This document shows, piece by piece, positions 3,825-38,802 of a stretch of DNA of 64,000 bases (positions within the stretch are counted from its first letter, which is position 1; each line of letters starts with the position of its first letter). The stretch spans positions 815,547 to 879,546 of the forward strand of contig JAUJYN010000037.1 of the NCBI GenBank assembly GCA_030737835.1, written 5' to 3'. The position numbers and the translations under genes were made by a program. The notes under the pieces are model-generated. The model did no database searches, had not been told where the DNA came from, and worked only from the letters and a program-made list of their open reading frames with translations. This DNA is from Acorus gramineus (lineage: Eukaryota > Streptophyta > Magnoliopsida > Acorales > Acoraceae).

Positions 3825-4206
3825 CCCCTAACATCCCCACAATGGCATCCAAGGATGCCCTCTCCTCTACACTGAGCCCCTCAACCTCTACCCCATCAAC
3901 TGCACCCTCCGCCGATGCTCCGGCCTCCAAAACTGCCCCTTTGGCCATCGCCGATCGATCCCCACGCCTCCTCTTACGCGAATACCCTATCACACCACTC
4001 CCCGCCTTCGAGACAACCCCCAAAGGCGTGCCCCCGACTGCACCCGCGCCCATCAATGGCGTCTCCACCATTTGGGTCATCTCCTTCGTGACCCTCCTCT
4101 CCAAACCGTCACTCTCCGATGAGCCCGACCCCGAGGCAGCCCCCCTCTGCCCTCGGGAAGACCGGAGGCGCTTTATCATTGAAGTCGTCCTCTTCCCCTT
4201 CGTCAT
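3825..4206 (-). pseudogene. First-exon relic of the antisense extra gene in element B
   Basis: The minus-strand frame starts at 4206 with MTKGKRTTSMIKRLRSS and continues through GVIGYSRKRRRGDR. The first exon of the PMD gene in element C starts MTKGKKMASIMKHLRSS and contains DVIGYTRERRRND, so the two are homologous. Both lie antisense to their element, about 0.8 kb from the 3' LTR. A TTATAA box sits about 190 bases upstream in both copies. It is a fossil and no PMD exon is present here. Confidence 0.7.
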
Positions 4207-5016: not shown

Positions 5017-5170
5017 TGTAATACCCAAATTTTGACCGTCCAAAAGGACAAAAATACTTCAAGTAATGCTTAATAATGACCACATTTGGACATCTAGATA
5101 GAAAACTCCCTTAGAAACCAAAACCGGAACCCTAGTCCAAACTCTTAGAAAAATCTAGGACCAGAACATG

Positions 5171-5226
5171 GGCGGCTACTTGAGAGTAGCCGCCCCATAC
5201 CAGGCGGCTAGTTGCAACTAGCCGCC
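5171..5226. promoter_or_regulatory. Two adjacent GCC-box palindromes in the LTR upstream region
   Basis: At 5171-5194, GGCGGCTACT and its complement flank a 4-base spacer (TGAG). At 5203-5226, GGCGGCTAGTTG and its complement abut. They lie about 300 bases before the TATA box, where an LTR enhancer would be. ERF binding is inferred from the motif only. Confidence 0.55.
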
Positions 5227-5519
5227 CCCCAACCGACCCCAAACCACCTTTCTAGATGGGACATAAAGCAAGCATGATTGCGGTGGATTGTCCCTTTTAG
5301 CCTCCCCATCTTAGCCGGTTCAACCCCAGTAGCCGACCTAGGCCACCGCTTGTCAGAGATGGGACGTTTGGCAGGTCATGATGGGGGCGGCTACTTGAGA
5401 GTAGCCACCCCTCACCTGGACAATGTCAGGCCACAAAGATCTAATGGAAGGTCAAATCAAGCACCTTATTACCCATTTTGATCTATTGTCCAGTGGACAC
5501 TCCCATACACCCTTTTTAC

Positions 5520-5527
5520 TATAAATA
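5520..5527 (+). promoter_or_regulatory. TATA box of C-family LTR
   Basis: TATAAATA followed by a G run. It is conserved at 43770-43777 in the solo copy, and as its complement in the minus-oriented copies (near 10167, 14531 and 38262). Confidence 0.65.
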
Positions 5528-6265
5528 GGGGGGGGTCACCAATCACTTCATATAACACACAATCATATCATCCACAACAATACACATTCCCAAGCCATAT
5601 TCACAAGCCAATACCCCCTCCCCCTACTTGAAACCCTAGAGAGAAAGAGAGAGAGAAGACCCATTTCCAAGCCAAATCTACTCTCCAAAAACCCTCTCCA
5701 AAACCCAGGTTAAACCTAGCTTAACCCCTGCCAAACCCTAACCCATTCCCTACCCAGGTTCTACCCAAATAGAGCCAGATCCCAAGCGGCTACTCAAAAC
5801 CAGCCGCCCCCCACCAGGCGGCTAAACCCCACTAGCCGGCCCTTCCCCTAGCCCACCTGAGTCCCAATTCTCCTTTAGTCAAGTTCCCGAAGCAGAAGAG
5901 GATCCCTGTCTTCACCTCTGTGTACGGCATGCCCGTGTCTCAGAGTGGAGACCACACAAACTCCCCCACGAAGGCGATCAAATCCACCCTCAACTTTTCT
6001 TGCTTTTTGAGAAAAGCAGGTGGCGATCACAACCACCCCTGAATCCTCCTGAGGACCCGTCGGCCGCCTCAGCAAGGAACGAACAACCCCCCCCCCCCAC
6101 CCCTTCCGAGAGACGATCCGACCGAGCCTGCCAAGGCGCGCACCGGATCCGAACCTCTGAAGAACCCCACACACGCAGACCCCGAAGGACCGGAAGTGGG
6201 AGGAAGGCTTTCCGGAGCACAACCAACCCCCAACACCCCTTTCAAAATCCGATACCGACACTAGC

Positions 6266-7660: not shown

Positions 7661-8010
7661 CGCATGGTGACACCCTGGTTATTACTATATACATCTGCAA
7701 TTGCCAGGTGTAGAGGGTTATAATCAACGGAGGTAGCAGCGTGGACATCTTGTTCTTAGACGCTTACAGTCGCATGGGGCTGGATGTGGAAGACATCAGG
7801 CGTTCCAACCCGCCATTGATAGGATTCGATGGGAGGAGGGTGAGTCCAGTCAGTGTGATAACCCTTCCGATGATGGCAGCCAACCGTACCCTGAACGTCA
7901 AGTTCATCGTCATCGACTCCCCCTCAGCATACAACGCCATCATGGGTCGCGAGTGGATCCATCAAATGGAGGGAGTTCCGTCCACTTTACATCAGGTCAT
8001 GTCTCACTAA
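7661..8010 (+). pseudogene. Element A aspartic protease fossil
   Basis: A retropepsin-like domain. The frame around 7715-7760 gives INGGSSVDILFLDAYSRMGL and continues to VKFIVIDSPSAYNAIMGREW, which are the two boxes that frame the protease in Tat-lineage pol. It sits between gag and reverse transcriptase as expected. Confidence 0.8.
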
Positions 8011-8146
8011 GGACGGGCGTTCCACCATTGACATCCGTGGAGATAACGTGGTGGCTCGAAAGTGCTATGCCCTAGCGACCCGGGTGTCGAACTACCCATC
8101 ACAGAGACAGCCATCCCCAGATTCATAGCAATCAATTGACCGGCCA

Positions 8147-9140
8147 TTGAAGGGGGCTCAAGCGTTAATCGAGTCCGAATCTGAGCCACCCACTCTTGAG
8201 CCAGTCAGCGTCGTCCCCCTGGATGCAGACGATCCCGAGAAAACCATCCAGGTGGCGAGTATCCTCCCCGACGAAGAAAAGAAAACTATCATCTCATTTT
8301 TGCAGGATAACCAGGATGTGTTCGCCTGGTTTGACAACGACATGCCTGGAATTGATCTCGCCATCGCAGTCCATGAGTTGAACATGCGCCCCGACGCAAT
8401 CCTGGTGAAACAAAAGCAACGGCGGTTCACACCCGAACGGAACAAGGTGATCTCCAATGAGATAGACCGGCTCCTCGTAACCGGGCTTACCCGAGAGGTC
8501 CACTACCCCAATTGGATTCCAACGTCATCTTGGCGGAAAAGAAAGGATGAAATGGCGTGTGTGCATTGACTTCGTCAACCTCAACAAAGCATGCCCCAAA
8601 GATGACTACCCGCTCCCAAAGATAGATCAGCTCGTAGACGCTACGACGGGTTATGAGCGTCTGTCCTTCCTAAATGGATACTCAGGATATAACCAAATCC
8701 CCATCCACTCTTGCGACCAGGAGAAAACAGCTTTTATCTTGCAAAGTGGGCTATACTGCTACAGGGTAATGCTGTTCGGACTAAAAAACGCGGGTGCCAC
8801 CTTCCAGCGCTTGGTCAACAAAGTGTTCAATCACCTACTCGGCTGAAGGATAGAAGTCTATATCAATGATATGGTTGTCAAAAGCCAAATCCGCACCGAA
8901 CATTTGCAGCACCTCTCTGAAGGCTTTAACGCCTTACGGAGGCACCGCATGAAGCTTAACCCCGCAAAGTGCTCATTCGGCGTTTCATCTGGACATTTCC
9001 TAAGGCACATCGTACACAGACAAGGCTTCGAGGCTAACCCCACCAAAATTCAAGAGCTGCGCAATTCCGGCATCCCTACGACTGTTCGTGACGTCTAGGT
9101 GATCACCAGCCGAATATCAGCCTTATCTCGATTTATTTCC
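8147..9140 (+). pseudogene. Element A reverse transcriptase fossil
   Basis: Several RT boxes are readable: the N-terminal MPGIDLAIAVHELN, the fingers box RVCIDFVNLNKACPKDDYPL, the FLNGYSGYNQIPI box, FGLKNAGATFQRLVN, and the thumb-side block LNPAKCSFGV. This is a Ty3/gypsy RT that copied the element RNA. It is a fossil. An RNase H start may follow near 9100, and I recognise no integrase in element A. Confidence 0.9.
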
Positions 9141-9439: not shown

Positions 9440-10402
9440 TGTCGGTATCGAATTTCCAGAAAACGAAAAAAAGGGGCCCTCTCTTCCTTCCTCTTCGGTC
9501 CTCCGGTGGTCTGTGTGTGTGGGGGGTTCTTCGGATCCAGAGAGCTGCGCCTTTTCAGACTCGGTCGGGTCGTCTCTCGGAAGGGGTGATGGGTTGGTTG
9601 TCCGTTCCTGGCTGAGGTGGCCGACGGGTCCTCAGGAGGATTCAGGGGTTATTGTGATCACCACCTGCTTTTCTCAAAAAGCAGAAAAAGTTGGGGCGAA
9701 TTTGATCACTTTCGTGGGGGAGTTTGTGGGGTCTCCGCTCTGAGACACGGATATGGCGTACACAGAGGTGAAGATAGGGATCCTTTTCTGCTTCGGGGAA
9801 CCTGACTAGAGGAGAATTGGGACTTGAGGTGGGCTAGGGAAGGGCCGGCTAGTTGGATTTAGCCGCCTGGTGGGGGGCGGCTAGTTGTAGGTAGCCGCCT
9901 GGTGTCTGGTTCAATTTGGGCAGAACCTGGGTAGGGTTTGGGTTTGGTTTTGGCAGAGGTTAAACCGGGTTTAGCCTGGGTTTTGGAGAGTGGATTTGGA
10001 GAGTGGTTTGGTGTAGGAAATGGGTTTCTCTCTCACTTTTATCTCTAGGGTTTGAAGTAGTGGTATAGGCTTGATGGTTGGGAATGTGGGTGGTTGGGGG
10101 TTATTGATGGGTATTGATTGCTATTGATTCCTATTGCTTGTTATTCATTGTTGGATATGAATTGGTTGCCCCCCTATTTATATTAAAAAAGGGGTATGGG
10201 AATGTTCACTGGACAATATATCAAAATGGGTAATAAGGTGCCTGATTTGCCCTCCGATTAGATCTTTGTTTTTCAAAACTGTCCAGGTGAGGGGCAGCTA
10301 GTTGTGTTTAGCTGCGTAGGGAGGGGCGGCTACTCTTAGGTAACCACCCCCATCAAAACCTGCCAAACGTCCCATCGGACGGTCAAAATTAGGGTATCCA
10401 CA
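9440..10402 (-). repeat. Element C 3' LTR
   Basis: It reads TGTCGGTATC at the left to GTATCCACA at the right, the complement of the family's TGTAGATACC...CCGACA. It is colinear with 37573-38802. GCC-type motifs occur at about 9840-9900 and 10290-10330. The frames at 9387-9805 are LTR artefacts. Confidence 0.85.
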
Positions 10403-11264
10403 ATTGTCCCTCATCGGACGGAGTCTTTGTGTGAAACAGAAAGACATCGATCGATGATAAGGAAAGAGACCCTTATTTTGGCCAGCCCAACCTTCAAGAG
10501 GTTTAGGACACATGACCTTTCAGGGAGGTAATTTAGGTCATCAGAGGTCGGGTTTTGACTAGAATGGTTATTATCTAAGGAGTGATCCAGGTGGGAGAGT
10601 GAGTAAAAGTAAGGAAGCGAGTGATCCAACCCTCGGACGGGGTTCTTAGCCATCGTGCACGGAGCAGCCTGGTGTCAGTTTCCTTGTGCCTACCGTACCC
10701 GTGCTTGGGTAGCTCAGTAAATCAAGGGGATATCGCAGACAGAAAGTAAAATAAAGTGTGTTTGATTTGGTGAGTTGGATCATTTGAAAGACAAAGATTT
10801 TGGAAAAGAACCAGAACTATAGAAATTTGAACTGAACGGTACCAGAAATTGTGATAAAACATCAAGAAAGTTGTGTTTGATCAAGTAAAACTTGGAAATA
10901 AACCAATACATGGCAGTTTGTTTTCAGAAAACTTGGAAATAAGTGTTTTTGAGAAGCTGGCAGGGGGTGGTTAGTTGGATTTATCTAGCAGGGAGGGACG
11001 GCTAGTGGTGTTTAGCCGTCGGATAGGGGGCGGCTAGACGCGACTAGCCACCGCCCGTCCGGGCCCCTTATAACCGAAAAAGGGACCCTCTCTCCTCCCA
11101 CCTTTTTTCAAAACGGTTGCCCTTCCCTCTCTTTTTCTTCTTCTCCATTTGAAACCGAAAAACCTTGATTTCCTTGACTTTGATTTGCCCTAGATCACTC
11201 CTTTCTTCTTGATTTCGAAGCCCTAGATTCCCTTGAGTTTTCTTTTCTTGCGAAATAGGAGGAG
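10403..11264 (+). promoter_or_regulatory. Upstream region and candidate promoter of the antisense PMD gene
   Basis: This spacer lies between the 3' LTR and the first PMD exon and is also conserved in element B (4207-5016). A TTATAA box (11068-11073) lies about 190 bases before the ATG, and the B copy has the same spacing. Just upstream (10960-11060) is a cluster of GGCGGCT-type motifs. The role is inferred from position and conservation between the two copies; no transcript evidence is available. Confidence 0.5.
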
Positions 11265-11948
11265 ATGACAAAGGGGAAGAAGATGGCCTCGATAATGAAG
11301 CATCTCCGGTCATCCTGAGAGCAGAGGGGGGCTGTCGCGGGGAGCTCATCGGAGATTGACGGGGCGGAGAGGAGGGTCGTGGAGGAGACGACAGGTGCGC
11401 CAGAGGTGCTATCGGGTGGTGCCGGTGCAGGTTTGGTCGGGGATGTGCCTTCGGGGGCTGTCCCGAGAGTTTCTACAGTTCCTAGGGGTGATGTGATCGG
11501 GTATACGCGTGAGAGGAGGCGCAATGATCGACTGGTGGTAGGCGGAAAGCGTTGGTTTGGAGGCCAGAGGATCGGCCAAGGGTGTAGCCGAGGAGGTAGG
11601 GGGTTAGGGGGCTGTCATTAGCGAGGAGACGGCCCGCATCTTTGGTGAGGTATTTGGTGTGAGGACGAGGGTGGCCTTGGTGATGGTGAGGCTAGTATAG
11701 CAGGTGAGGAAGAGGCGAGGAGAGTCTTGGGTGACTATGAGGTGCTGACGTCCGGTGCGGTGGGCACGGAGGTGGGTGGGGGCATTGGGTTTGAGGCCAA
11801 GGAGGGCATGGGTGCTGAGGGTATTTGCGCGGAGGAGGCCGAGTAGGCCGTGGTGGAGGAGGAGGGGGACGATGATGAGGGGGATGACGACGGGATGGAT
11901 GATCCCGACGAGGCTGAGGCGGGGACTCCCGGGGCCACACGAGCCGTG
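11265..11948 (+). pseudogene. Antisense extra gene of element C: first exon
   Basis: It starts MTKGKKMASIMKHLRSS and continues as a Gly/Val/Glu/Asp-rich, low-complexity stretch that becomes strongly acidic near the end. A donor-like GTATGC follows. It is homologous to the element B relic at 3825-4206. The Pro/His-rich minus-strand frames over 11692-11940 are its shadow. Its function is unknown. As part of a retroelement fossil, its integrity is not described. Confidence 0.55.
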
Positions 11949-12569
11949 GTATGCCTCTATTTCCCTCTACCTATTACCTTGTTCTAAATGTATATGTTTT
12001 AGTGGTATGCATGAAGTGTGTAAGAAGTATATATATATGCGTCTTTTAAATAGGCATGCTTGTTTGTGTATGAAAAAATGATCACGGTGGGAGTGTTATA
12101 AGCATGCTATTTCATAGTCTATAGAATGTTTTAATATGTTTGCATAGTGGGTTTGCCTGTATAGGTATGGTGTTGTTCTAGTACAAGAGATGGTGGTGGG
12201 TTTGCATATGCATGAGTATGTGAGTTTTTAGGGGAGTGAAAATTTTTGAAATAGATATGCTTTGATGTGATAAGGGCATAGAAAGGCAAGTGAGCATGTG
12301 TTGATGATCATAGTGGGAGTTTTATAAGCATGCTTTATGGGGATGAATAGGTTTATAAAAATGCGTTTGTGTTGTTTTAAGCAGGGTAAATTTTGATTTG
12401 CAGATAGACCACGATGAGAGTGTTAAGGGAAAAAGGAAGTGTATTTATGTTTCATGCTTGCATATGTATATTTAATCCTCTAAGCATGGTTTAGAAATGA
12501 AAATTTTGTTTTAGGATTCTCACCTTTCAGACGTCTTCGGACTAACCCCTCTTCTTCTGTTTCTTTCAG

Positions 12570-13286
12570 CGGACAAACCGTATTCGAGCCCTCTGGCATG
12601 AGACGAAGAGGTGGTATGATGCCCTGAGGCCAGAGGAGAGGAACCTAGTGGATGAAGCAGGCTTTCGCTCCTTTTTTCTGATCGAGCTCTTTCACGTCCA
12701 TCATCCTTACCTGGAGGCATTTGCGGAGAGATGGGATTCGGAGAGCTGCACCTTCATTCTCCCAACGGGTGCGGTGATGCCGACATTGGAGAACGTTCAG
12801 CGGATCACGGGCCTCCCAGTCTTGGGTGAGGCGGTGATAGTGGCTACCAGTCCGGACTACAAGGCGCTCTTCCAGGAGTTGATCGGGGATTGGGAGTATG
12901 TGGAGCGTGAGAGGTCACTGAACTGGATCCCCCTTGGACAGCTTTCGAGACAGTATGGCCTTTCCTTCACACGGCGTCAGAAGAGTGAAGCTGTAACTAG
13001 CTTTGAGAGGAGACGGCTGATTATTGAGGGGAGAGAGGTGGCCACGTGCCCACAGAGGGCACAGAGGGAGTTGATGGTGTTCTTCCTCTATTTCTTTGGC
13101 TGGGTCCACTTCTTGACGACCTTTGACAAAGTCTCCTCTCACTCTCTACTACTGATGAGGAACCTAGAGGCCATGGGACGCTTTGCCTGGGGAGCGGCCA
13201 TGCTGGCTCATCTTTTCGTGGAGCTGTCGAAGAAGGTGAAGAGAGCCGGGGGTAAGAATCTCGGTGGTTTCACAGCATTTTTGGAG
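12570..13286 (+). pseudogene. Antisense extra gene of element C: plant mobile domain (PMD) exon
   Basis: It opens after a polypyrimidine-AG acceptor (TTCTGTTTCTTTCAG) and reads about 239 residues: a helical start (KRWYDALRPEERNLVDEAGF), then AFAERWDSESCTFILPTG and MPTLENVQRITGLPVLGEAV. These are the signature of the plant mobile domain (PF10536, MAIN/MAIL-type and transposon-borne relatives). Later come SFERRRLI, FFLYFFGWVHFL and GAAMLAHLFVELS, also usual for the family. PMD proteins act in silencing and genome stability in Arabidopsis (MAIN, MAIL1), and many copies ride on transposons. A donor follows at 13287. The call is firm on motifs; the role here is unknown. Confidence 0.85.
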
Positions 13287-13366
13287 GTATAATTAGCGAA
13301 GATAGAAATGATTTGATTTAAGTTCATTAACTTCACCTGACTTTGGTTTTGACTTTCTTTCTACAG

Positions 13367-13522
13367 ATTTTTGGGTATGAGCACTTCGCCATCACTCGCC
13401 CGACCTAGATAATCTTCGACTGTGCCCTCCCTTGGGCCATGAGATGGGCGCCTGCGGGGTCTTCTCGCCTGCGCCGCCTCGCTCAGTTTCGGGAGGCGTT
13501 CCGTGCCTTGAAGGAAGAAGAG
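13367..13522 (+). pseudogene. Antisense extra gene of element C: exon-like block 3
   Basis: It lies between an AG acceptor (TTTCTTTCTACAG) and a GT donor (GAAGAGGTATTT). Residues include IFGYEHFAITRP and RLRRLAQFREAFRALKEEE, matching the part of PMD proteins where a Trp-rich block follows the core domain. Intron-like gaps on either side are 80 and about 72 bases. Confidence 0.6.
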
Positions 13523-13594
13523 GTATTTTATTTGAATTTTTTAGTTTGTACTGGATTTTTATTTGTCTAAGCTCTCTTCTCATGTCTGTTGTAG

Positions 13595-13821
13595 ATGACT
13601 TGGAGGTCCTATGCTGAGGAGGAAGTCCCCGAGGAGTTATCGCGTGACATCTGGATGATCTTCTTCAATGAGGTGATCTTTCACGCGATCAGCTGGGTCG
13701 TCCGCCAGCTTGGGTACCATCAGTGGGTGTCGGATCCTCTGCCGAAGCGTCCTCCGATCCCGGTGGCCGAAATTCCTTGGGATACGAACCTGCCGAGGAA
13801 CTATGCAGTATACGTGTGGGG
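13595..13821 (+). pseudogene. Antisense extra gene of element C: exon-like block 4
   Basis: It follows a TTGTAG acceptor. It reads MTWRSYAEEEVPEELSRDIW, then HAISWVVRQLGYHQ and PPIPVAEIP, resembling the C-terminal part of PMD regions (R-Q-G-x-Q block). A solo LTR of the same retroelement family begins directly after it at 13822. Confidence 0.6.
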
Positions 13822-15047
13822 TGTCGGTATCGGATTTCGGAAGGAGAAAGGAAAGGAAAGGGGCCCTCTCTTCTTTCCTCCTCGGTGGTCCTCCGGTGGT
13901 CTTGGTGCGTGTGTGTTCTTCAGAGGCTCGGACCCGGACAGCTGCGCCTTGGCGGGCTTGGTCGGATCGTCTCTCGGAAGGGGTGGGCGGTTTGGTAGTT
14001 CGTTCCTGGCTGAGGCGGCCGACGGGTCCTCAGGAGGATTCATGGGTGGTTGTGATCGCCACCTGCTTTTCTAAAAAAAAGCAGGAAAGGTTGGGGCGCA
14101 TTTGATCGCCTTCATGGGGAGTTTGTGGGGTCTCTGCTCTGAGACACGCATATGCTGTACACAAAGGTGAAGACAGGGATACTCTTCTACTTCGGGAACC
14201 TAACTGAAGGAGAATTGGGACTCAGGTGTGCTAGGGGAAGGGCCGGCTAGTTGTACTTAGCCGCCTGGTGGGGGGCGGCTGGTTGTGGGTAGCCGCCTGG
14301 TGTCTAGTTCAATTTGGGCAGAACCTGGGTAGGGTTTGGGTTTGGTTTTGGCAGTGGCTAAACCGGGTTTAGCCTGGGTTTTGGAGAGTGGTTTGGGTGT
14401 AGGAAATGGGTTTCTTTCTCACTTTTCTCTCAAGGGTTTGAAGTGGTGGTGTTGGGAATGTGGGTGGTTGGGGGTTATTGATGGGTATTGATTATGGAAT
14501 TGATTCCTATTGATATGAATTGGTTGCCCCCTATTTATAGTAAAAAAGGGGTATGGGAATGTCCACTGGACAATAGATCAAAATGGGTAATAAGGTGCTT
14601 GATTTGACCTCCCATTAGATCTTTGTTCTCTGACAAATGTCCAGATGAGGGGCAGCTAATGGTGTTTAGCGTCCCCGTGAGGGGCAACTACTCTCAAGTA
14701 GCCGCTCCCATCATAACCTGCCATACGTCCCATCTCTAACAAGCGGTGGCTTGGGTCGGTTACTAAGGATGAACCGGCTAAGATGTGGCGACTAGAAGGG
14801 ACAATCTGCCGCAATCATGCTTGCTTTATGTCCCATCCAGGAAGGCGGTTTGGGGTCGGTTTGGGGGGCGGCTACTCTCAAGTAGCCGCCCATGTTCAGG
14901 CTCTTAGATTTTTCTAAGTGTTGGACTTAGGGTTTTCGGTCTCGTTTTCTGAGGGAGTTTTCTATTAGATGTCCAAATGTGGTTGTTTTCCAATATTACT
15001 TGAAGTAAATTTCTTTTCTTTGGACTGTCAAAATTAGGGTATCTACA
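13822..15047 (-). mobile_element. C-family solo LTR inside the PMD gene
   Basis: This 1226-bp LTR runs TGTCGGTATCGG...GTATCTACA. The flanks are TGGGG (13817-13821) and CGGGG (15048-15052), a 5-bp duplication with one difference. It matches 37573-38802 and 43252-44496 and carries the same GCC-box motifs. No internal region is present, so recombination between two LTRs of a full insertion is the likely origin. Confidence 0.85.
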
Positions 15048-15052
15048 CGGGG

Positions 15053-15182
15053 ATTGGTCAAGAAGTGGACTTTGGTCGAGCGTCGCCCTGAGGTGGTTGA
15101 TAGCGAGGAGTACATGGCCTGGTTCCGCCAGGAATATGTCAACATCCTCGGGACTATGGAGGAGGAGATCCCAGACGCCTAT
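15053..15182 (+). pseudogene. Antisense extra gene of element C: exon-like block 5
   Basis: It resumes immediately after the solo LTR with LVKKWTLVERRPEVVDSEEY and AWFRQEYVNILG, and ends at a GTAAGA donor. It is acidic and helical. The next acceptor is TTTTGTAG at 15255. Confidence 0.55.
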
Positions 15183-15255
15183 GTAAGAAAAGATCCTTTT
15201 TCTTTTCCCTCCTTGCTTCTTCTCTTTGTGTTCTAAATGATGTCTTCTTTTGTAG

Positions 15256-16230
15256 GTTGAACTGAATGAGTTGGAGAAGAAGCTCAAGACCGCCAACTAG
15301 CATCTCCAAGCACGGGCCGGGCAAGTAGAAGGGTTGTGGGGTTAGAGGCAATGCTTGCAGGGCCAGGTTCGGGTCCTTGAGGCCCAGGTGGATGCTCTGT
15401 CAAGAGCAAGACCTGATGGCGCTTCTTCCTCCTCTGCTCCTCTGTTCAGTGCCTCCGATCGAGAGCTCGAGTTGATGAATGAGCTAGGCATGGTCCATAG
15501 CGAGCTCCTGGCTACTCAGATGGAGCTTGATCAGGCGAGGGAGAGGGCTGCGAGGGCCAAGGATGAGGTGGACCTATTGTGGTCCGAGAGAGCCTTGAAA
15601 GAGGAGGAGATGGACCAGCTGTGGTCCCGTGTCATACGGAGGGAGGAGGAGTCTTCCATTCTAGGCCGTGAGCGGGACTCCCTCCAGGCCAGAGTGTTGG
15701 AGTTGGAGGCGTCGGCTGGCGTGCCTGGTGGATTGATGAGAGACCTGGTTCGTTCCCTTCAGGCGGCCGGGGACAGGGATCGGGAGGCTCTCAGGATTTT
15801 GGAGGTGAGGGCACGGGAGTTGGAAGAGAGGTTGAGGGCAGCCGAGGACCGATCCAGGAGCATGGAGGGTTGTCTTCACCAGAGGCTGGAGAGAAGAGAT
15901 CGGGACATGCAGCAAGTCCACCTCTGGGAGGCCACCATGAGGGGGAAGCTGGTTGGCGGAGGGTCTATGACGGAGGCGGACCTCGACCTTCTTCCTCTCG
16001 AGCCTAACCATTCGATCTCTGCCTCCCTAGCCACCAGAGCTTCTTTGAGCAGAGCTTCTCGCCCATCAGCGACTCAGAGCTATGGGAGATATGCGAGGGC
16101 TGCTTCTTCGGTGAGGGAGACTCCTGGTGCTCAAGACACTCCAGAGGTCCAATCTTCTCCTCAGCTACTGCCTCCAGCAGAGCCAGGACGCTCCTCCTAC
16201 TCAGCCTTCCGGGTACGATGACGCTCTGAG
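15256..16230 (+). pseudogene. Antisense extra gene of element C: coiled-coil C-terminal exon
   Basis: The block is dominated by heptad-like Leu/Glu/Arg repeats (for example VRVLEAQVDALSRARP, ERDSLQARVLELEASAG and LEERLRAAEDRSRSMEG) over about 220 residues. A Ser/Pro-rich tail follows with LPLEPNHSISASLATRASL. A long coiled coil after the PMD is common in transposon-borne PMD proteins and suggests self-association. The exon may end at a GTACAA donor after CTCTGAG. The opposite-strand frames (15661-16011, 16004-16288) are shadows. Confidence 0.6.
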
Positions 16231-18420
16231 GTACAATCTTTTGTGTCTTTGTTTTGGTAGAAGAAATACATATGTGCAAGGAATTCATGCTTGTCTTCTT
16301 TTCTTTTGGCTTTAGGTGATCGTTTTCATGATAGGCAGCTCAAGACATCTGAATCAAGGCTTCTTTGGTGGACCTCTACCTTTTTTACTTGTTTTATTTT
16401 TAGAAAACACTCTTTTGGTTTATTTTAGGCTTGTTTTTCTGTTTATGGACAAACTATACCTTTCTTTTTGTGTATGGATGGGTGATTTCTAATTGGTTTG
16501 AAAGGGTGTTTATTGGTTTTAATTTGGTTTGTGTATGTGTGTGGTGATTGGTTTGGTTTAAGGTTTGGGGGTGGATGTATGGTTTAGTATGTGATTTTGG
16601 TTTCTGCTATTGTTTGATTCATTTTTATACAGGTTTTATAAATGTATATGTATATGAAATGCGTGTATGCAGGTTTTGGGAAGAAATATTCCTAATGGGT
16701 TTCAAAGGTTTGAAGAGTTGATTAAAAACTGGACTGACAGTGCAGGTGGGGCTACAGGTGAGGGGCGGCTAGTTGTCTTTAGCCGCCTTATGACTGGTAG
16801 ATTTTACCTGTAGGGCGGCGGCTAATTGGTTTCAGCCATTTGATGGCAGGCAGCTAGTCGAGGATAGTCTCCCCTGGCCTGGGACAATCTTCTGATTCTG
16901 CCATCTGTTTGCTGCTGCTGAAAGTCCTTGTGAGTGCTTGTTTAACCTTCAAGACCTGTAAAAACATTCTTTCCATGGACCAAGTGTTAAATCTGTCCAG
17001 ATTGCGCCCCTGCACTAACTTTTGAGTCCTTCTTGTTCAAATTGTCAAGGGCTACAACCCATCTAAGGTAGTAAAGTAAAGAAAAAAGTGCAAGAGACCA
17101 TGCTTGGCATAAAAAAAGGGAGGGAGCCTAGATGGCTCTGAGTGTGATTTTGTGAGAATAAAAGAGACTCTCAGGTGTGTATGAGAGTGGGGCAATTTTT
17201 CTTTCTCAAATGTGTGTGGAAGGGTATGAAATGGAAGTAATAGGAGCAATTTTCTTTTGGTATGGGAGTTAGTTGTGGTATTTTGAGAAAATTGAATGCC
17301 TAAATGTTTGGAAAAAGAAAATGCAACTTCATGCATAAGTGTAAAAGACATAAGGGAGCATTTTATTTCTTCAAAGGATCTTTTATGTAAGAGGGCAGCG
17401 TTTCCAATTTCCTAAAGTAAAAGACACCATCAAGTCCTTGAAGAGGGGCCCTTGTGGTCACTTATGTCCAAACCAGAATTGTATTTGAAAGGTGTTGGGT
17501 TTTAGGTGTCAATTCCTCAAGTTCATGGTTCTCAAATGCTTGATCATATTATTCTACACATGCTGGGAAATCCATGAATGCACCAAGATTTAAGTCAAGC
17601 AAGCTATTGTAAAAAAAGTGAACTCATGTGAGTGTGTGCTATTGTAAAAAAAGAAAAGGTTTATCTTTGGTTGAGATTTCGCCTTTCCGAGTAGACATGG
17701 TTCAACTCCAACTCCATAGCAAGAAAAAAGGGTGGGGTAAGAGTAATATCTTCCTTTGAGGAAATATTTTAGAATTGTCCCAGTCTGGCATATGTCTTTA
17801 CTTCCTAGGTCCCTCTGGCTTTCTTCTTTTTACCACTTCTTTATTTGGGTGGAGAGTACAGTCCGCTGGGCGTATACCCGTATTTCGAGTGGAGAGTACA
17901 ATCCGTTTGCTTGGATGTGTACTAGTATAGCCTTTTGTTCAGCATATACTGTGCGTAAAGGCGTTCATGCCTGCTAAAGTAGAGAGTTTAACCCGTTGTC
18001 TGGGTGTTGTTTTGATCTTTGGCCTCTCATTGCCTTTCTTTTGTTTTGTTTTGAGGGGGGGGGGGGGGCTTTTCTATTTTTCACCCCTGTTCTTTTCTGC
18101 TTCCCCTCTAGAAGTGTTTATATAGTGCCAGAGCCAGTTTTGGGACATATGTCAGGTCTGGGTAATCCCTCATTTTGTCTTTGGGTTGATACGAGTGGGG
18201 GGAAAATAAGGGGAGATGCTTTGGGTTTATAAAATTGTCCCAGTCTACAGGGTAGGCAATTTCTCCTTTTATCAGATAAACCAGTTCCTAAGTCATACTG
18301 GTGTGATGGAGGTGGCATGAGTGGTGAATATATGAGTTCAAATAAAATACAAGTTATCTTTGAGAGTCTTACAATTCTATCATCAGGTTTAAACACTGGA
18401 AATCACAGGAAGGAAGAATA
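16231..18420. other. Element C spacer between the PMD gene and pol
   Basis: No gene is seen. It holds the likely last intron or 3' end of the PMD gene, two GCC-type motif clusters (16755-16790 and 16815-16860), a T/G-rich tract, loose repeats of GTGGAGAGTACARTCCG near 17850-17990 and a G run (18055-18068). None of the short reading frames is supported. Confidence 0.55.
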
Positions 18421-18973
18421 ATATTTCTCAAGTATTGAGAGTTTCTATGCATGGAATTTCTTTAGATAAAGTGCATTCCACGAACCTGAGACTTCGACTC
18501 CTTCAGCGTCCACCAAGCGGTAGGCATTCCCGGAATAGGCATGGGTGATCACATAGGGTCCCTCCCATGTGGGTTGCAGCTTGCCTTTGGGGTGGGGCTG
18601 CCTTGATGGCATGATTTGCTTAAGTACAAGCTCCCCAATTTTATTTTTTCTCTATTACTTTCTTTTCAAATGCCCTTGCCACCCTCCTCTGGTAGACTTG
18701 GGCATGGTCCGCGGCTCTCAGCTTCTTTTCGTCCAATAGCTCGAGGCATAGCAGGAGCGCCTCTCTTCTCTCTTTGATCTACAAGTCTTCTTCTAATACT
18801 ATTCTTAAGGATGGGATAAGAATTTCATAAGGTACTATCGCTTCTACCCTGAATGTGAGTGAATACGGGGTCTGGCAGGTCCGGTAAGCCCAGAGGGCAT
18901 CGATTACCTTGTCTAGCCAGTCAGTGACTTTATGGGTTTCTACTATCTTTTTTATGATTCTGAGCAAGGTTTT
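18421..18973 (-). pseudogene. Element C integrase C-terminal fossil
   Basis: The minus strand reads WLDKVIDALWAYRTCQTPYS, FRVEAIVPYEI and, further on, LDEKKLRAADHAQVYQRRVA. These are the conserved end of the integrase core and the C-terminal domain of Tat-lineage elements. It is separated from the rest of integrase by the solo LTR 18974-21159. Confidence 0.85.
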
Positions 18974-21159
18974 TGTCACGCCCTAGGGCGGCCGTCCCCG
19001 AGACGCAGCAATATATATAGTATCAGCTATCAAGTACAAGAGGTCAACAATGACTCCAATAAATAACAAACAAAATGGCAAAGCAATGATAACTGATAAC
19101 TCAACTTAAAAGCGGAAGCATAAAAATATCACTAAGTCTGTAAACCAAAAATATCATTACAGACTTGAATATACAATCAATGTCCTGTGAGAGCCAAGTC
19201 TATTCCAAATAAAATACAACCTGTGCCACATGCATGACTTACAATACATAAAATGACTCTAGGACTGCTGATAACCTCGCACTCACCACCCGCCGGAAGA
19301 ACGCTCCACGCACATAAGACCACGCCATAGGGAAGCTCCCGCTCCACGCCCAACACTGCCCCTGAAAAGAAACAGTATGCGACGGGTGTGCTACAAGCTC
19401 AATGAGTGGCTGGAAACCAATAACCATTACAACAATTCAATGTTAAGGCAATTTCCTTTCAAGGAAAAAACATGGGAACGGACGAACAACGAATGGGTCA
19501 CACGGCGATGTGTCTTCACCTCATCCTCACCCTCACCCTTTAGAGGTGACATAGGACTTTTGGAAGAGACTTAGACTGCTCTACACATTACATAAATACA
19601 TGCCCATACTAGAGGGGCGCATGCAATACAGTCATTCATACATGGATACAATACATGCAATATAAGCCTAGCATGCAAGATATCTAACATATTATAGTTT
19701 AAGCATTGCCATACTACTTATCTACACAAGTAGTATAGCTAGGATGCCCCATCGATGCGCAACGCACGACTACGCGCGTCGAGCGCATCTCGAGGGGGGG
19801 GGGGATTGGATCAAACCACTCACCGCAACCCAGATCGCCGCGCGTCCGGTCTACGAGATCTGCAAAACACAACCAATGATCCACAATTAAATATGGAACC
19901 TCCTATCACACATGTAAGCCTACTTCATGAAGACCCTAACTCATGATACTTCCATATTATCACACAAGACACATGCAAACAACTCCTTGACACACAACCG
20001 AGCAAAACTGCCAAACCTGCTGCAACCAGCCCTACTAATTTGATCTCCACAGCACCCAATACACTTCCAAAAATTATGAAATAAATCATGCACATTCTCT
20101 GATATGCTGGGATCATAATACATGAAGACATTAGAACCTAATTGTTCTTGTACAAGCCCTAAACAAATTATTTCTAGAAGCAGGTCAATTCCTACACGAA
20201 TCTGGACAGGCCATGCAAAACTGGTTCTAACTTGCACACCATATATCATAATGACCCCAAATTTCATATATAACAACAAGACACATAGATGATCATATTA
20301 TATGAAGACACAATCCTAAACATGTGCTTATAAATACTAGATTCACTGAGATCTTTAAAAAACAAAGTGCTGCCTTACCAAAACAAGGGGAGGGAAATGG
20401 GGAGATGCGGGGTTCTCGACACACCCTCGACCACCTCAACCACCACCACCACCACCACCTCATCAGCATCTCCTCAAGCCCTCTTTTGCTGAAAAACAGG
20501 GGGGGGGGAGACATGAGAGGGAGCTTGAGAGAAGAGAATCAACAACAACAACAACTACTTGCACAAACACACATACCTTGCTCTTCCTCCTTCACCTTCT
20601 CCTTCTTTTGCTTCTTCCTCCTTCTCCACACACAAAGAGAGGAAAAAGAGACCAAGAGAGGGAGAGAAAGAGAGATCCACGAATTGGGAGAGAGGGGGAG
20701 AGAGAGAGAGGGCAAAAAGGTCATTTTCATGCCCAAATAGTGTCTAGGGGTGACCATAAGGGGGGTGATGAGGTTAGGGTTAGGCTCACCCACTCAAATG
20801 CCAAAAGACCAATGGTTTCTTCATCACTAAGCAAGGTGGGGGTAAGGTTACCAAAGGTCACCACATCCTCAAAATATCTCACACTATTCGACCAACCAGG
20901 AACTCTCAAAACCCGGATACGGTTCGGAACTGCATATTTTTCAAAACGTTATCGGAATTCGATAAAAAATTTATGGGTAGTACTAAACGGTACCAGGACC
21001 CATAATATGCAGTTAGATTTCCAATCAAAGTATTCCAACTCCCGCAGGAAGCTAAAAGCCAAAATTTTAGCGACTCCGATCGAAAAAGAAAAAGGCCCTG
21101 AATGACCCAGATGTGACCAAGGCTTAACCGAAATGGCTCCAAATGACACAGGCATAACA
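18974..21159 (-). mobile_element. Chromovirus (Tekay/Del-type) solo LTR inside element C integrase
   Basis: A 2186-bp LTR reads TGTCACGCCC at the left to GGCATAACA at the right, the complement of TGTTATGCC...GGGCGTGACA. Flanks are GTTTT (18969-18973) and ATTTT (21160-21164). It matches both LTRs of element D but is shorter. It holds (CCA)n, CAA-rich and G-run simple repeats, and the conserved LTR block at 19384-19409. Confidence 0.85.
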
Positions 21160-21746
21160 ATTTTGTTGGTGGCCTCTGCTTGCCCATTTCCCTGGGGGTA
21201 ATATGGTGTGGAGTGGTGAAGCTCTATTTGGTGTTTATCACACAGTTCCCAGAATTCTTGGGAAATGAATTGTGGGCCATTATCAGTTATGATCATTCTG
21301 GGGGTGCCGAACTATACAAGAATATGGGTACGAACGAAACGGGCCAAGGTGGAACTTTTGATCAGTACATAGGACTCAGCTTCGGCCCATTTGGTAAAAT
21401 ATTCTGTGGCAGTGCCGAACCGTGCAAGAATATGGGTACGAAAGAAATGGGCCAGGGTGGAACTTTTGATCAGTACATAGGACTGTCTCGGAATGGTCCT
21501 ACTACATCTAATGCCCACATAGAAAATGGCCATGGTGAAGTCATGGGGTGTAAGGAAGATGTTGGTGCATGTATTTTGTTGGCATGAGTCCGACATTGGA
21601 CACAGAGTCGAACATATTTGTTGCAATCCCCTTTGAGTGTGGGCCAGTAATAGCCCATTAGTACCTTTTTTGCTAGCATCTGAGGTTGACATGACCTCCA
21701 CAGACTCTTGAGTGAGCTTATTCCATGATGGTGTATGCTTCCTCAT
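21160..21746 (-). pseudogene. Element C integrase N-terminal and core fossil
   Basis: The complement shows YYWPTLKGDCNKYVRLCVQC (zinc-binding region), WALDVVGP (first catalytic-type box) and ITDNGPQFISQEF with HHSTPYYPQGNGQAEATNK (second and third boxes). Integrase inserts the cDNA into the host chromosome. It is a fossil. Confidence 0.85.
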
Positions 21747-22618
21747 CGTCTAGGCATCTGAGTAACTCCCCATTGAAGGATGCTTGAAAGAGTATTCCCC
21801 CTCGGAGGCAGTATTTGATTGCCGTCTGTAGCGTATTCTGGAAACGAACCGTCTTCGAGGTAGTTTTTGATATCAAAGTACCATGGATTTCCATCATCCA
21901 TATCCTCTAGATCAAGGGCTAGGATTTTTGTGGTACTAGTGATTCCTTCTGTCTGGTTTTGTTGATTTAGAAGGTTTTCAGTTTTATAATCTCGAAGTTC
22001 GGTGGCAGGTGTTTCTAGCCTTTGGATAGTGACCGTTTTGGATTTCTTGGATATGGGGAAGGAAAGTGATGAAGCTAATGAGGCTAGACAGTCTGCAAGA
22101 ATATTGCCAGTTCTAGGTATAAAGATGTGGGTGACCTTACAAAACTGTTTCAATATGATCATAGCTAGCTCCCTATATGGTTTTAATTTTGGGTCCCTAG
22201 TCTGACACTTATTCAAGGTCTGGCAAATTACTAAAAGTGAGTCTCCAATAATGTCTAGCTCTTTGACCCCTAGAGCTAGAGCTGTCTTCAAACCTGCTAT
22301 CAGAGCTTCATATTCGGCAATATTGTTGGTGGCGTTGAATGTGAGTTGAAACGCCCGTGGGATAATGACGCCTTCGGGGGAGATTAGTGCTATTCCTATC
22401 CCTCTCCCTTGTTGATTAATTGCTCCGTCGAAGTACAGTGTCCATGTCTTCCTATCTTTTTCTTCGATGAGCGCAAATATTTCTTCGTCTGGGAAGTCGG
22501 TCTTTACTGGTTCATAATCAGGGAGAGGGAGCTGAGCGAGATGGTCAGCAATGGCTTGACCTTTAACGGACTTCTGAGTGGCGTAAGTGATGTCAAACTC
22601 ATTTAACTGGACTTGCCA
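21743..22618 (-). pseudogene. Element C second (archaeal-type) RNase H fossil
   Basis: The complement shows an INQQGRGIGIALISPEG-type block, then FNATNNIAEYEALIAGLK, VKELDIIGDSLLVICQTL and VTHIFIPRTGNILADCLASL. This second RNase H between the first one and integrase is a hallmark of the Tat/Ogre branch of plant Ty3/gypsy elements. Confidence 0.8.
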
Positions 22619-24300
22619 TCAGGCCAAGCGACCAGTTAATACAACTTTCTCGAATAGGAACCTTACCGGGTCTATTTTGGCAAAGTATTTGACTTTGTGG
22701 GCGAGAAAATAATGGCGTAGCTTCTGGGAAGCCCATACTAAAGCTAAGCAAGTCTTTTCTATGGGAGGGTAGGTTTGCTCATATTCAATTAATGTCTTAC
22801 TTAGATAGTAAACAGCCTTTTCTTTCCTTCCCGTGTCATCGTGTTGTGCAAGCACAGCACCAATGGCCTCCTCGGTTGCTGCTACATAAAGAAGTAGGGG
22901 TCGTCTGGGTACTAGGGATTGTAGGACTAGGGGATTAAGGAGGTATTTCTTTAAGCTATCAAAGGGCTTTTGGCATTCGCTATCCCAGTTAAACTTAACT
23001 CCTCCTTTTAGTAGCTTATAAAAGGGGTGGCATCGTTCGGCATGTTGTGAGATAAATCTCCTAATGAATTGCAGCCGACCGATGAGTTCTCTTAATTCCT
23101 TTAAGTTCTTGGGTGGGGGCATTTGGGCAATGGCCCTTGCTTTAGTTGGATCAACTTCAATCCCCCTTCTGCTTACCATGAACCCCAAGAGCTTTCTTTG
23201 GGTTCATCTTAAGTTAAAATTCTCTGCATCTTTGTAGTACTTGCTTGAGTATATCTGCATGTCCTATTCGAGTCTTAGATTTAACTAGGATGTCATCTAC
23301 GTAAACCTCTACTAGCTTATGCATCATATCATGAAATATTGAAGTCATCACTCTTTGATACGTTGCACCAGCATTTTTAAGTCTGAAAGGAATTACAACA
23401 TAGTAGTAGGTCCCCCAGGATGTGGTGAAGGATGTTTCTTCCTAGTCATCTTCTGCCAACCAAATCTAGTTGTATCCGAAAAAGCCATCCATAAAAGAGA
23501 GCATTTCATATCCTGATGTATTATTGACAAGGAGATCAATATGTGGAAGTGGGAAATCATCCTTTGGGCACGCTCGACTGAGGTCCCTGAAGTCAATGCA
23601 TACTCGGATCTTGCTGTCTTATTAGCTATCCATTTCGGGTATAAGACTACCTAGATAAATTTAGCTTGGTGGAGTTTGTCCACCTCATCTTTAATTTTTA
23701 AAGCCACCTCCGGATGAAGGCGCCTCAGCTTTTGCTTTACTGGTTTTGTGTTAGGCTCTAAAATTAATCGGTGCTCGACCAAAGAGGTATCGAGCCCGGG
23801 CATGTCTTTGTAAGACCAGGCGAAGACATCAATATACTCACGTAGTATTTTAACTAGACTTTCCTTTTCATCTGGCTTTAGCTCCGCATTAATTAGAATG
23901 ACCTTGGGGTTAGCTTCAGTTCCTAGGTTTAGCTCTTCCACCTTTTGGTCTGCTTCTTCTGTCCTCTCATCAAACCTCTGGAGGCTCTGCTTAAATTCTT
24001 CGGAGATGTCTTCTTCTTCTTTGCTGTCTTCATCGCAGATTTCAAAGACTCCCAAACCATCATCTAAGTTTTCTATATTATCTAGGTCTGGTTCTTCTAT
24101 AACTGTTATAGACTCAAATTTTTCTAGGCCAAAAAGGGTCCCACTATGTCCTTTTATGTGGTTAATGATATGGTCAGGTATCTGACTTCTAGAGGGCTTG
24201 GCTGTCTTAAGTGGGGTACTGGGGCTGGAATGTTTAGTTTGGCTGGCTAGATGCCGCAAGTTATTTAGACGATCAGAGTCAGCACTGAAGGGATGCCATG
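22619..24300 (-). pseudogene. Element C reverse transcriptase/RNase H fossil
   Basis: RT N-terminal boxes (FAWSYKDMPGLDTSLVEHRL, KPVKQKLRRLHPE) lie at 23.65-23.85 kb. Palm sequences lie at about 23.2-23.6 kb. The thumb and RNase H (RGIEVDPTKARAIAQMPPPK, LKELRELIGRLQFIRRFIS, PLLLYVAATEEAIGAVLAQ, KAVYYLSKTL) lie at 22.6-23.2 kb. The order and motifs are standard Ty3/gypsy. An acidic linker (EEEDISEEFKQSL) precedes the RT. Confidence 0.9.
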
Positions 24301-25043
24301 CTGGGGTGAAGTCATCTTTGTCAAATAAGGACCCTAAGGTTTTAGTTTCCTTTTTTTTTTTTTAAAGACAACTAATATTTACAACTTACTGGATTCACTT
24401 AGGTGCTTCAACCGACCTTCCTCCAACAACTGGCGCTCCTTTGTTGCGATGCTTGCGCACTACAAGGGAAGAGCGCTTCGTTAGTTGGAGTATCATTGAC
24501 TGGTGGTGTGTTTAAGGGTTTATCGGGGTGTGGAAACAACCAGTGGAGGGAGCCCGAGAGATAGTCCGGCTCTCCTTCCTGGATAGAGGTTAAGGGACGA
24601 GGATACGTGGTTTGTTCAACTTGTTTTGTGGTTTTTCCTTTTATGAAATGTTCATATAGTCCCCAATTACATTTCCCTTTTAAATCAGTGTGTTTGTTGG
24701 ATGAGCCAAGGCCCTTCTTGCCAAACCAGGCTGGGATTTTGATGGGTTTTAGGATCCCACCTTTTAGCCCTAATGTTTTTCCCGGGATGTGACCCATGGC
24801 TTTCATCATGTGCCAACCTGGGTTTTTAGGCTTAGGGTGATTTATCTTTATAGTACTGGTGAGGGTGTCTTGAGGGTTCAACCAATTGGCTGGGAAGTCT
24901 AGGATGTGAATAGTGGTTTCTTTTGGCTTTAAGTCGATGATCTTTATGGCGATAGTCTCGCTACCGGTAGACCCTGATTTAGGTTCTTTGATTGCGTCCC
25001 CCCGTATTTTGATTATTTGATTTCCCAAGGAGAATTTTAAACA
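24301..25043 (-). pseudogene. Element C pol linker fossil (G-patch-like)
   Basis: The complement encodes a Lys/Pro-rich segment with MMKAMGHIPGKTLGLKGGI and FGKKGLGSS. Similar G-patch-like linkers occur between protease and RT in some Tat/Ogre elements. The family match was not tested. Confidence 0.5.
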
Positions 25044-25544
25044 CTAGTGCAAGGGGGAAGAGACCCCTTTGATTGAGGCTAACCATTTACGTCTTAGGAT
25101 CATGTTATAGTCAGAGTCCATTTCTAAAACATATGCCTCAATAATTGTCTCTAAGGACCCTATTTTTAGTGGGAAGTCTTTAACACCAAGAACTGGGCGA
25201 GCCGTCTTTTCATAGGCGAATATCCGAGTATCTGTTTCCAGGAGCGTGGTGATATGTCCGCCAATGTATTCAAAGGTGTGTAGTGACATGAGGTTTACTC
25301 CTGCACCGGTATCGATCAGTACTTTATCTACAGGATACCCGTCGATATCCACTGTGATGCATAAGGTTGAGGTGTTGATAACTTTATCGCGGACTTCTTC
25401 TTTGGGCCTAAATGTTATCATAGGCCCCAGCCCTGCAGAAGCCAAGGCTACTGGCATGTTTAAGGTGGAGATTTGAGGGTCAACTTGGACTCTTTCTAAA
25501 AACATCCTTAGGGCCTGTTGGTGGTGTTCTGAGGTTTCGATCAA
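25044..25544 (-). pseudogene. Element C aspartic protease fossil
   Basis: A clear retropepsin region: KVLIDTGAGVNLMSLHTF with the hallmark DTGA, then VYLEMDSDYNMILRRKW-type sequence near the end. It is preceded by an alanine-rich link to gag. Confidence 0.85.
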
Positions 25545-33050: not shown

Positions 33051-33055
33051 ACTTT

Positions 33056-37572: not shown

Positions 37573-38802
37573 TGTTGGTATCAGATTTCGGGAAAAGGAA
37601 AGAAAGGGGCCCTCTCTTCCTCCTCTCCGGTCCTTCGGTGGTATGTGCGTGTGTGTCTTCGGAGGCTCGGATCCGGAGAGCTGCGCCTTGGCAGACTCGG
37701 TCGGGTCGTCTCTCGGAAGGGGTGATGGGTTGATTGTCTGTTCCTGGCTGAGGCGGCCAACGGGTCTTCAGGAGAATTCATGGGTTGCCACTTGCTTTTC
37801 TCAAAAAGCAAGACAAGTTGGGGCGGATTTGATCGCCTTCATGGGGGAGTTTGTGAGGTCTCCGCTCTGAGACACAGATATGCCATACACAGAGGTGAAG
37901 ACAGGGATCCTTTTCTGCTTCGGGGAACCTGACTAGAGGAGAATTGGGACTTGAGGTGGGCTAGGGAAGGGCCTGCCAGTTTGATTTAGCCGCCTGGTGG
38001 GGGGCGGCTAGTTGTAGGTAGTCACCTGGTGTCTGGTTCAATTTGGGCAGAACTTAGGTAGGGTTTGGGTTTGGTTTTGGCAGAGGTTAAACCGGGTTTA
38101 GCCTGGGTTTTGGAGAGTGGTTTGGTGTAGGAAATGGGTTTGAAGTGGTGGTATAGGCTTGATGGTTGGGAATGTGGGTGGTTGGGGGTTATTGATGGGT
38201 ATTTATTGCTATTGATTCCTATTGCTTGTTATTCATTGTTGGATATGAATTGGTTGCCCCCCTATTTATAGTAAAAAAGGGGTATGGGAATGTCCACTGG
38301 ACAATAGATCAAAATGGGTAATAAGGTGCTTGATTTGACCTCCCATTAGATCTTTGTTTTCTGACAATGTCGAGTTGAGGGGCAACTAGTTGTGTTTAGC
38401 TGCCCAGAGAGGGGCGGCTACTCTCTGGTAACCGCCCCCATCATAACCTTCCAAACGCCCATCTCTGAAAAACAGTGGCTTGGGTCGGTTACTAAGGATG
38501 AACCAGCTAAGATGGGGCGGCTAGAAGGGACAATTCGCCGCAATCAAGCTTGCTTTATGTCCCATCTAGGAAGGCGGTTTGGGGTCGATCAGGGGGGAGA
38601 CTAGTTGGAACTAGCCGCCCTGTATGGGGCGGCTACTCTCAAGTAGCCGCCCTTGTCCAGGCTCTTAGATTTTTCTAAGTGTTGGACTTAGGGTTTTCAG
38701 TTTCTGAGGGAGTTTTCTATTAGATGTCCAAATGTGGTTATTTTCCAATATTACTTGAAGTAAATTTCTTTTCTTTGGACGATCAAAATTAGGGTATCTA
38801 AA
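37573..38802 (-). repeat. Element C 5' LTR (1230 bp)
   Basis: TGTTGGTATC at the left to GTATCTAAA at the right. It matches the other C-family LTRs. GCC-type motifs are at about 37985-38020, 38392-38440, 38510-38530 and 38595-38655. The frames at 37502-37870 are LTR artefacts. Confidence 0.85.

What the first reader, a model, noticed from the sequence alone, without database searches (positions are those of the whole stretch)
11265..16230. Intron-bearing PMD gene carried antisense inside a Tat-lineage retrotransposon
Seen: a plus-strand gene with GT-AG introns, a PMD exon (12570-13286) and a coiled-coil exon lies inside minus-oriented element C, between pol and the 3' LTR. Known: Tat elements often have extra ORFs in this place, and PMD proteins of the host (MAIN, MAIL1) take part in silencing. 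Inference: because the gene is antisense, its introns cannot be spliced out of the element's genomic RNA, which explains how a retroelement kept introns. A silencing-related domain carried by an element could affect host control of it.
Basis: partly seen in the sequence, partly recalled or inferred. Interest (0 to 1): 0.75.

Follow-up and report, generated by a model that had tools for sequence, protein, structure and literature searches.

The report
Backwards intron-bearing gene inside a retrotransposon
A plant jumping element that copies itself through RNA carries, in reverse orientation, a gene with introns whose positions match those of related genes in the same genome; the copy here is dead, but its relatives show that natural selection once preserved the protein.

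Summary
A plus-strand gene (11265-16221) with a PMD domain (PF10536, 80.8 bits, cut-off 34.9) lies antisense between pol and the 3' LTR of a minus-strand Tat-type Ty3/gypsy element. It is part of the element: L048 holds the whole order from LTR to integrase, and L046 holds PMD to integrase. Introns 2 and 3 are in place in 31 of 31 other copies aligned. Pattern searches of the genome found no spliced copy. Codon-position changes are 54:27:198 on internal branches and 339:295:637 on terminal ones: purifying selection while the family was active, weaker later. New here: the two introns inside the PMD domain share position and phase with PMD genes linked to MULE transposons and with a third class in the same genome, so the gene was probably exchanged as genomic DNA. 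PMD in Tat elements, and antisense ORFs in Tat elements, are both known. A role against host silencing is untested.

The parts
9440..10402 (-). 3' LTR of the element (about 300 bp internal deletion)
   Evidence: sister of the 37573-38802 LTR, support 0.98, K2P 0.083; self-BLAST
10403..11264 (+). stretch between 3' LTR and gene start, with TTATAA about 200 bp before the ATG
   Evidence: TTATAA in 8 of 9 rows where the stretch aligns (L017 not alignable, L037 partial); ATG at 11265 in 16 of 17 alignable rows
11265..11948 (+). exon 1, basic N-terminus then low-complexity; stop at 11316 in this copy; no codon-position signal
   Evidence: donor GT in 15 of 17 rows
11949..12569 (+). intron 1 (acceptor AG in 30 of 32 rows)
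12570..13286 (+). exon 2, PMD profile positions 1-180 in relatives (3-179 in the window match)
   Evidence: PF10536 80.8 bits; L048, L038
13287..13366 (+). intron 2, phase 0; GT 32 of 32, AG 30 of 32 rows
13367..13522 (+). exon 3 (52 codons; stop at 13406 in this copy)
13523..13594 (+). intron 3, phase 0; GT 31 of 32, AG 31 of 32 rows
13595..13821 (+). exon 4, first part (PMD profile 240 onward in relatives)
13822..15047 (-). solo LTR of the same family inserted in exon 4, flanked by TGGGG/CGGGG
   Evidence: exon 4 is uninterrupted in 26 of 26 copies that have both its halves
15048..15182 (+). exon 4, second part (starts with the target-site repeat)
15183..15255 (+). intron 4; GT 24 of 26, AG 26 of 26 rows
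15256..16221 (+). exon 5, coiled-coil-like; stop at 15298 in this copy
16222..18479 (.). stretch between gene and integrase end, no gene recognised
   Evidence: 43 genome matches listed for 16231-18960
18480..22618 (-). integrase and second RNase H (aRH); integrase interrupted at about 18971-21160
22619..25544 (-). RNase H, RT and protease, with frame breaks
   Evidence: (RNase H; protease below cut-off), RT read
37573..38802 (-). 5' LTR; primer-site candidate TGGCGATCATGGTGGGACC follows on the minus strand

Best explanation
This is a dead copy of a Tat-type LTR retrotransposon family whose accessory gene is a PMD gene with four introns, placed antisense between pol and the 3' LTR. Shown: the gene is a standing part of the element, its PMD exons were under purifying selection while the family replicated, its introns are kept in the copies examined, and the two introns within the PMD domain share position and phase with other PMD genes of the same genome. 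Inferred: it is transcribed from a promoter between the 3' LTR and exon 1, spliced by the host, and gives a nuclear PMD/coiled-coil protein that helps the element. Because the genomic RNA is made from the other strand, the introns are not spliced out of it and pass on at every cycle. The gene entered the element (or left it) as genomic DNA, not as a processed message.
For: PMD match; exon 4 of relatives matches PMD profile 240-347, best of three E 3.3e-4, below the cut-off. Whole colinear order LTR to integrase in L048, PMD to integrase in L046. Eight further places in the two capped lists where the downstream stretch and pol lie close together, all on opposite strands (read by eye). Introns 2 and 3 in place in 31 of 31 copies; intron 4 in 26 of 26 copies with exon 5 (25 by BLAST, L048 by alignment). 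Codon-position divergence: exon 2 .093/.076/.228, exon 3 .100/.063/.196, exon 4 .112/.098/.211; kept in exon 2 at sites where no copy has CpG (.069/.042/.185). Internal 54:27:198 against terminal 339:295:637 changes, Fisher p 1.5e-10. No spliced copies (against 77, 80). Phase-0 introns: FLQ|IFGYEHF and EEE|MTWRPY in most copies of this family, LLQ|LWSWERL and ESQ|VIWQPY in L049, LLE|VWVYEHL and PDQ|VDWDPY in L053. The Grande antisense ORF is transcribed from its own promoter and its product is nuclear (PMC7264820, part 2 read).
Against: No transcript data. The sampled copies look decayed: exon 2 is in frame and open in 7 of 32 rows. Exon 1 shows no codon signal and exon 5 only a weak one. Terminal branches still have half of their changes at position 3 (637 of 1271), so decay is not fully neutral or mutation is biased. 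Intron 2 diverges less than exon 2 overall (.097). In 2 of 4 pol-linked stretches (L045, L047) only the tail of exon 5 was found. None of six 10-kb stretches chosen by PMD similarity showed pol of this family by DNA; one (L044) gave a weak RNase H protein match, 26% identity. Copies were picked by similarity to exon 2-intron 2-exon 3, which favours intron-bearing copies; the pattern searches answer this in part.
Confidence: 0.83

Rival explanations
1. The PMD gene is an ordinary host or MULE-borne gene that happened to insert in, or be overlapped by, one element copy.
For: PMD matches are common in this genome (163, a lower bound), two of the stretches read carry a MULE transposase upstream, and nested insertions are frequent in the window.
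Against: The same gene lies in the same place and orientation with integrase in L046 and L048, next to the LTR in 4 of 6 further stretches, and in a truncated second copy at 3635-6206.
Confidence: 0.04
2. The PMD gene belongs in sense to a plus-strand element whose 5' LTR is 9440-10402.
For: The LTR begins TG and ends CA on either strand, and a plus-strand pol-like frame lies at 7741-8846.
Against: The primer-site candidate follows the minus-strand LTR end at 37573; pol of the colinear relatives is opposite to the gene; the eight downstream-stretch/pol pairs are all on opposite strands.
Confidence: 0.03
3. The selected product is not the protein but antisense RNA that pairs with the genomic RNA and tunes silencing.
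For: Proposed for antisense ORFs in general (PMC7264820, part 2 read).
Against: Constraint follows codon position and splice sites, which an RNA-only role does not predict.
Confidence: 0.08
4. The PMD protein interferes with the host PMD silencing pathway (MAIL1/MAIN with PP7L), as an anti-silencing factor.
For: Host PMD proteins act in TE silencing in Arabidopsis (PMC5418596 and PMC7156037, passages); purifying selection on the element's PMD.
Against: Only 27-30% identity to the other PMD classes compared; no interaction or expression data; other roles (integration, transcription, RNA export) fit equally.
Confidence: 0.18

Closest known systems
Tat-lineage elements with PMD extra ORFs (PMD in 57% of Ogre elements, Neumann et al. 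2019, PMC6317226; gypsy-encoded PMD-A clades, Ikeda et al. 2017, PMC5418596)
   Same: Ty3/gypsy Tat element with a PMD-coding extra gene
   Different: the passages read do not describe an intron-bearing antisense PMD gene; the Neumann survey took uninterrupted ORFs of 250 codons or more, which a gene split by introns would often escape
Antisense ORFs of Retand, RIRE2 and Grande (gene 23) (PMC11963269, PMC7264820)
   Same: antisense, between pol and 3' LTR, Smc-like stretches in some, own promoter in Grande
   Different: nearly all Retand clusters encode Transposase_28 (PF04195) there; no such match in the pieces scanned here; introns in these genes are not described in the parts read
MULE transposons with PMD genes (Babu 2006 as cited, and Ikeda et al. 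2017, PMC5418596)
   Same: PMD gene on a mobile element; the MULE-linked genes of this genome have the same two intron positions and phases
   Different: DNA transposon, so intron retention needs no special orientation; an extra intron appears between the two shared ones
HTLV-1 HBZ (antisense gene named in PMC11963269; its splicing is recalled, from no call)
   Same: antisense gene of a retroelement
   Different: unrelated protein of an animal virus

Membership tests
PMD (PF10536) | profile score above the curated cut-off | tested here: met
   80.8 bits against 34.9
Tat lineage, Ogre/Retand type | second RNase H (aRH) between RNase H and integrase | tested here: met
   RT_RNaseH 22619-23188, RVT_3 21743-22291, integrase next to it in L048 (H2C2 zinc domain above cut-off; rve core below cut-off)
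LTR retrotransposon | paired LTRs with 5-bp target duplication | tested here: met
   LTR sisters 0.98; CCACT/CCACC, 4 of 5
Ogre | sense intron between protease and RT | tested here: inconclusive
   GTAAGT and TTAG kept in window and 2 of 3 others, the third not alignable
Ogre | primer site for tRNA-Arg | not tested
   no tRNA gene found in the window; no reference tRNA compared
Retand | antisense ORF with Transposase_28 (97% of clusters in PMC11963269) | tested here: not met
   no PF04195 match for the exon 2 to exon 5 pieces scanned; the antisense position itself is met
PMD-A clade of gypsy PMDs | position in a PMD tree with reference sequences | not testable with these tools
   no reference plant proteins held
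Host PMD silencing proteins (MAIN/MAIL1) | role in TE silencing | not testable with these tools
   needs experiment

The most novel reading that the evidence does not exclude
Antisense carriage lets an LTR retrotransposon hold and transmit a full intron-bearing host-type gene indefinitely; the PMD gene has moved between host, MULE and Tat elements as genomic DNA with its ancestral introns, and the element's PMD protein acts on the host PMD silencing pathway.
Probability: 0.15. Interest if true: 0.85.

Novelty: new variant of a known kind. Interest (0 to 1): 0.52.

Why it matters
Retroelements normally lose introns at an RNA cycle, and whether PMD genes were host-first or element-first is called open by Ikeda et al. 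(PMC5418596, discussion passage). Introns shared between an antisense retroelement gene and other PMD genes indicate that the exchange did not pass through spliced RNA, and give a character for polarising it across plants. The codon-position result also gives an antisense accessory gene of a Tat element protein-level evidence of past use.

Tried and rejected
AlphaFold of the PMD exon with 13 sequences gave mean pLDDT 51.6, so no fold search was run. A PDB sequence search gave one chance-level hit (E 0.16). The whole-genome PMD search scored 117 of 1379 candidates, its list was cut, and I did not see the window's own exon in it; it says little about this family. Of five stretches taken from its matches, L049 and L050 were shown by Pfam to carry a MULE transposase upstream; L051 and L052 were not scanned for one; in L053 a MULE frame lies on the other strand. 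Sense-orientation and chance-insertion readings were rejected as told under rivals. Steinbauerova 2011 is not held; what it says on introns is unknown to me. In the paper searches made I saw no description of an intron-bearing antisense PMD gene in an LTR element; most papers were seen only as listings. Read: PMC11963269 parts 1-3 of 5, PMC7264820 parts 1-2 of 3. Passages only: PMC6317226, PMC5418596, PMC7156037, PMC9289625, PMC5408684, PMC6696364.
Full report
What is there. Exon 2 of the plus-strand gene (12570-13286) matches PF10536, Plant mobile domain, at 80.8 bits against a cut-off of 34.9. The gene runs from an ATG at 11265 to 16221. Gag-pol is on the minus strand: protease near 25044-25544, RT near 23651-24259, RNase H 22619-23188, a second RNase H 21743-22291, then integrase. 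The LTRs are 9440-10402 and about 37573-38802. They are each other's closest relatives among the ten LTR sequences compared (support 0.98, K2P 0.083), and the flanking 5-mers are CCACT and CCACC. At a recalled rate of 1.3e-8 per site per year that distance would mean roughly 3 million years; the rate was not tested. On the minus strand the 5' LTR ends in ACCAACA and a TGG-starting primer-site candidate follows.

Exon 4 is split by a solo LTR of the same family (13822-15047) with TGGGG/CGGGG on its sides. In 26 of 26 copies that have both halves of exon 4, the halves adjoin. The window copy also has in-frame stops in exons 1, 3 and 5 (read; exon 3). Its integrase is interrupted by a roughly 2.2-kb repeat at 18971-21160, which is absent from the integrase of the four stretches L045-L048. 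This copy is a fossil.

The arrangement recurs. A DNA search with exon 2-intron 2-exon 3 listed 40 matches, the window included, the others at 83-89% identity (474 first-look candidates, 40 scored). I used the 29 other loci that were handed out, plus L046 and L048 found through pol; 10 listed matches were not fetched. L048 holds LTR, upstream stretch, exons 1-5, downstream stretch, integrase and second RNase H in one colinear order, with the gene opposite to pol; L046 holds exon 2 to second RNase H. L045 and L047 have the downstream stretch and pol but only the tail of exon 5. Of six 10-kb stretches, four have the LTR next to the gene; none showed pol of this family by DNA, and one (L044) gave a weak RNase H protein match on the opposite strand (26%). 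Reading the capped lists, I find eight places besides the window where the downstream stretch and pol lie within about 4 kb, all eight on opposite strands.

The introns are real and kept. Over 32 aligned rows (window and 31 copies), donor 2 is GT in 32, acceptor 2 AG in 30, donor 3 GT in 31 and acceptor 3 AG in 31; acceptor 1 is AG in 30. Donor 1 is GT in 15 of 17 rows that hold it. Over 26 rows, donor 4 is GT in 24 and acceptor 4 AG in 26. For comparison, the commonest dinucleotide reaches 29 of 32 rows at 65% of intron 2 positions and 45% of intron 3 positions, so single sites are only suggestive and the set together is what counts. If genomic RNA were spliced at these introns, processed copies should exist. 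Patterns for joined exons 3|4 and 4|5 gave 0 matches at up to 2 mismatches. The 2|3 pattern gave 43 matches, all with exactly 2 mismatches: 36 begin as the intron's own acceptor does, 4 have an intron donor match just upstream, and the 3 left were fetched and keep the intron. The unspliced donors 2 and 3 gave 104 and 133 matches.

The protein was selected. Mean pairwise divergence at codon positions 1, 2 and 3 is .093/.076/.228 in exon 2 and .100/.063/.196 in exon 3, and .112/.098/.211 in exon 4. In exons 2 and 3, transversions alone and sites where no copy has CpG show the same trend. In exon 5 the signal is weak and in exon 1 absent. On a tree of 31 rows (L046 left out), internal branches carry 54, 27 and 198 changes at the three positions and terminal branches 339, 295 and 637 (Fisher p 1.5e-10). 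Changes on a tree are not independent trials, so the p value is only a guide. This is the pattern of a gene constrained during replication and largely freed after insertion; the remaining position-3 excess on terminal branches may be residual constraint or mutation bias. Against a simple reading: intron 2 diverges less than exon 2 overall (.097), and only 7 of 32 rows keep exon 2 in frame and open.

Shared introns. The PMD domain of the element is cut at profile position 180 and just before 240. Other PMD classes exist in this genome. L049 to L052 and L003 were translated; in L049 and L050 Pfam finds a MULE transposase upstream on the same strand, while L051, L052 and L003 were not scanned for one. 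The first PMD exon ends at profile 180 in L051 and the last begins at 239 in L049, with phase-0 introns at LLQ|LWSWERL and ESQ|VIWQPY (sequence of L049). A third class (L053) has LLE|VWVYEHL and PDQ|VDWDPY, also phase 0. The protein alignment puts the first junction in the same column in all three classes. The junctions of the MULE-linked and L053 genes are read from sequence, not from transcripts. Two introns shared in position and phase among three divergent classes (27-30% identity over exon 2) are best read as inherited. The gene was therefore probably exchanged between element and genome with its introns, as DNA. The direction cannot be told here.

Mechanism. Most likely this is an accessory gene transcribed from the region beside the 3' LTR. 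A TTATAA stands about 200 bp before the ATG and is kept in 8 of 9 rows where the stretch aligns. Splicing by the host would give a PMD/coiled-coil protein with a basic N-terminus. Grande gene 23 is transcribed from its own promoter and its product is nuclear (PMC7264820, part 2 read). What the protein does is inferred only; serving transcription, integration or RNA export is as likely as acting on host PMD silencing.

Known and new. [quoted passage not shown] The combination seen here, an antisense PMD gene with conserved introns under purifying selection that share positions with other PMD genes, I did not find in the searches listed under Tried and rejected. The 2011 survey that reported such ORFs was not available. 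Hence: a new variant of a known kind.

Noticed in passing
window 18971-21160, 26916-30257, 33055-36439: Three copies of another repeat family nested in the element; the last two are 94% identical. Not classified.
   Followed up: no
window 3635-6206 (minus): A second, truncated copy of the same element: LTR, upstream stretch, gene start, then the last 200 bp of an LTR.
   Followed up: partly
window 24411-25028 and about 24290-24370 (minus): Weak G-patch match (E 0.046, below cut-off) and a possible Ogre-like sense intron between protease and RT (GTAAGT...TTAG in the window and 2 of 3 others).
   Followed up: partly
L037: Mosaic copy: intron 1 96% and exon 5 92% identical to the window but exon 2 only 85%, suggesting recombination between copies.
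   Followed up: no
window about 18718-18733: Similarity of many of the 43 listed downstream-stretch matches stops here, inside integrase; perhaps pol-deleted, non-autonomous derivatives, which may explain more first-look candidates for it than for pol (818 against 187).
   Followed up: no
window 54767-55441: Tandem array of a 116-bp unit, near fragments of the same LTR family.
   Followed up: no
L053:7439-9865: 809-aa frame with MULE transposase domains on the strand opposite to a third class of PMD gene; whether the two belong together is unknown.
   Followed up: partly
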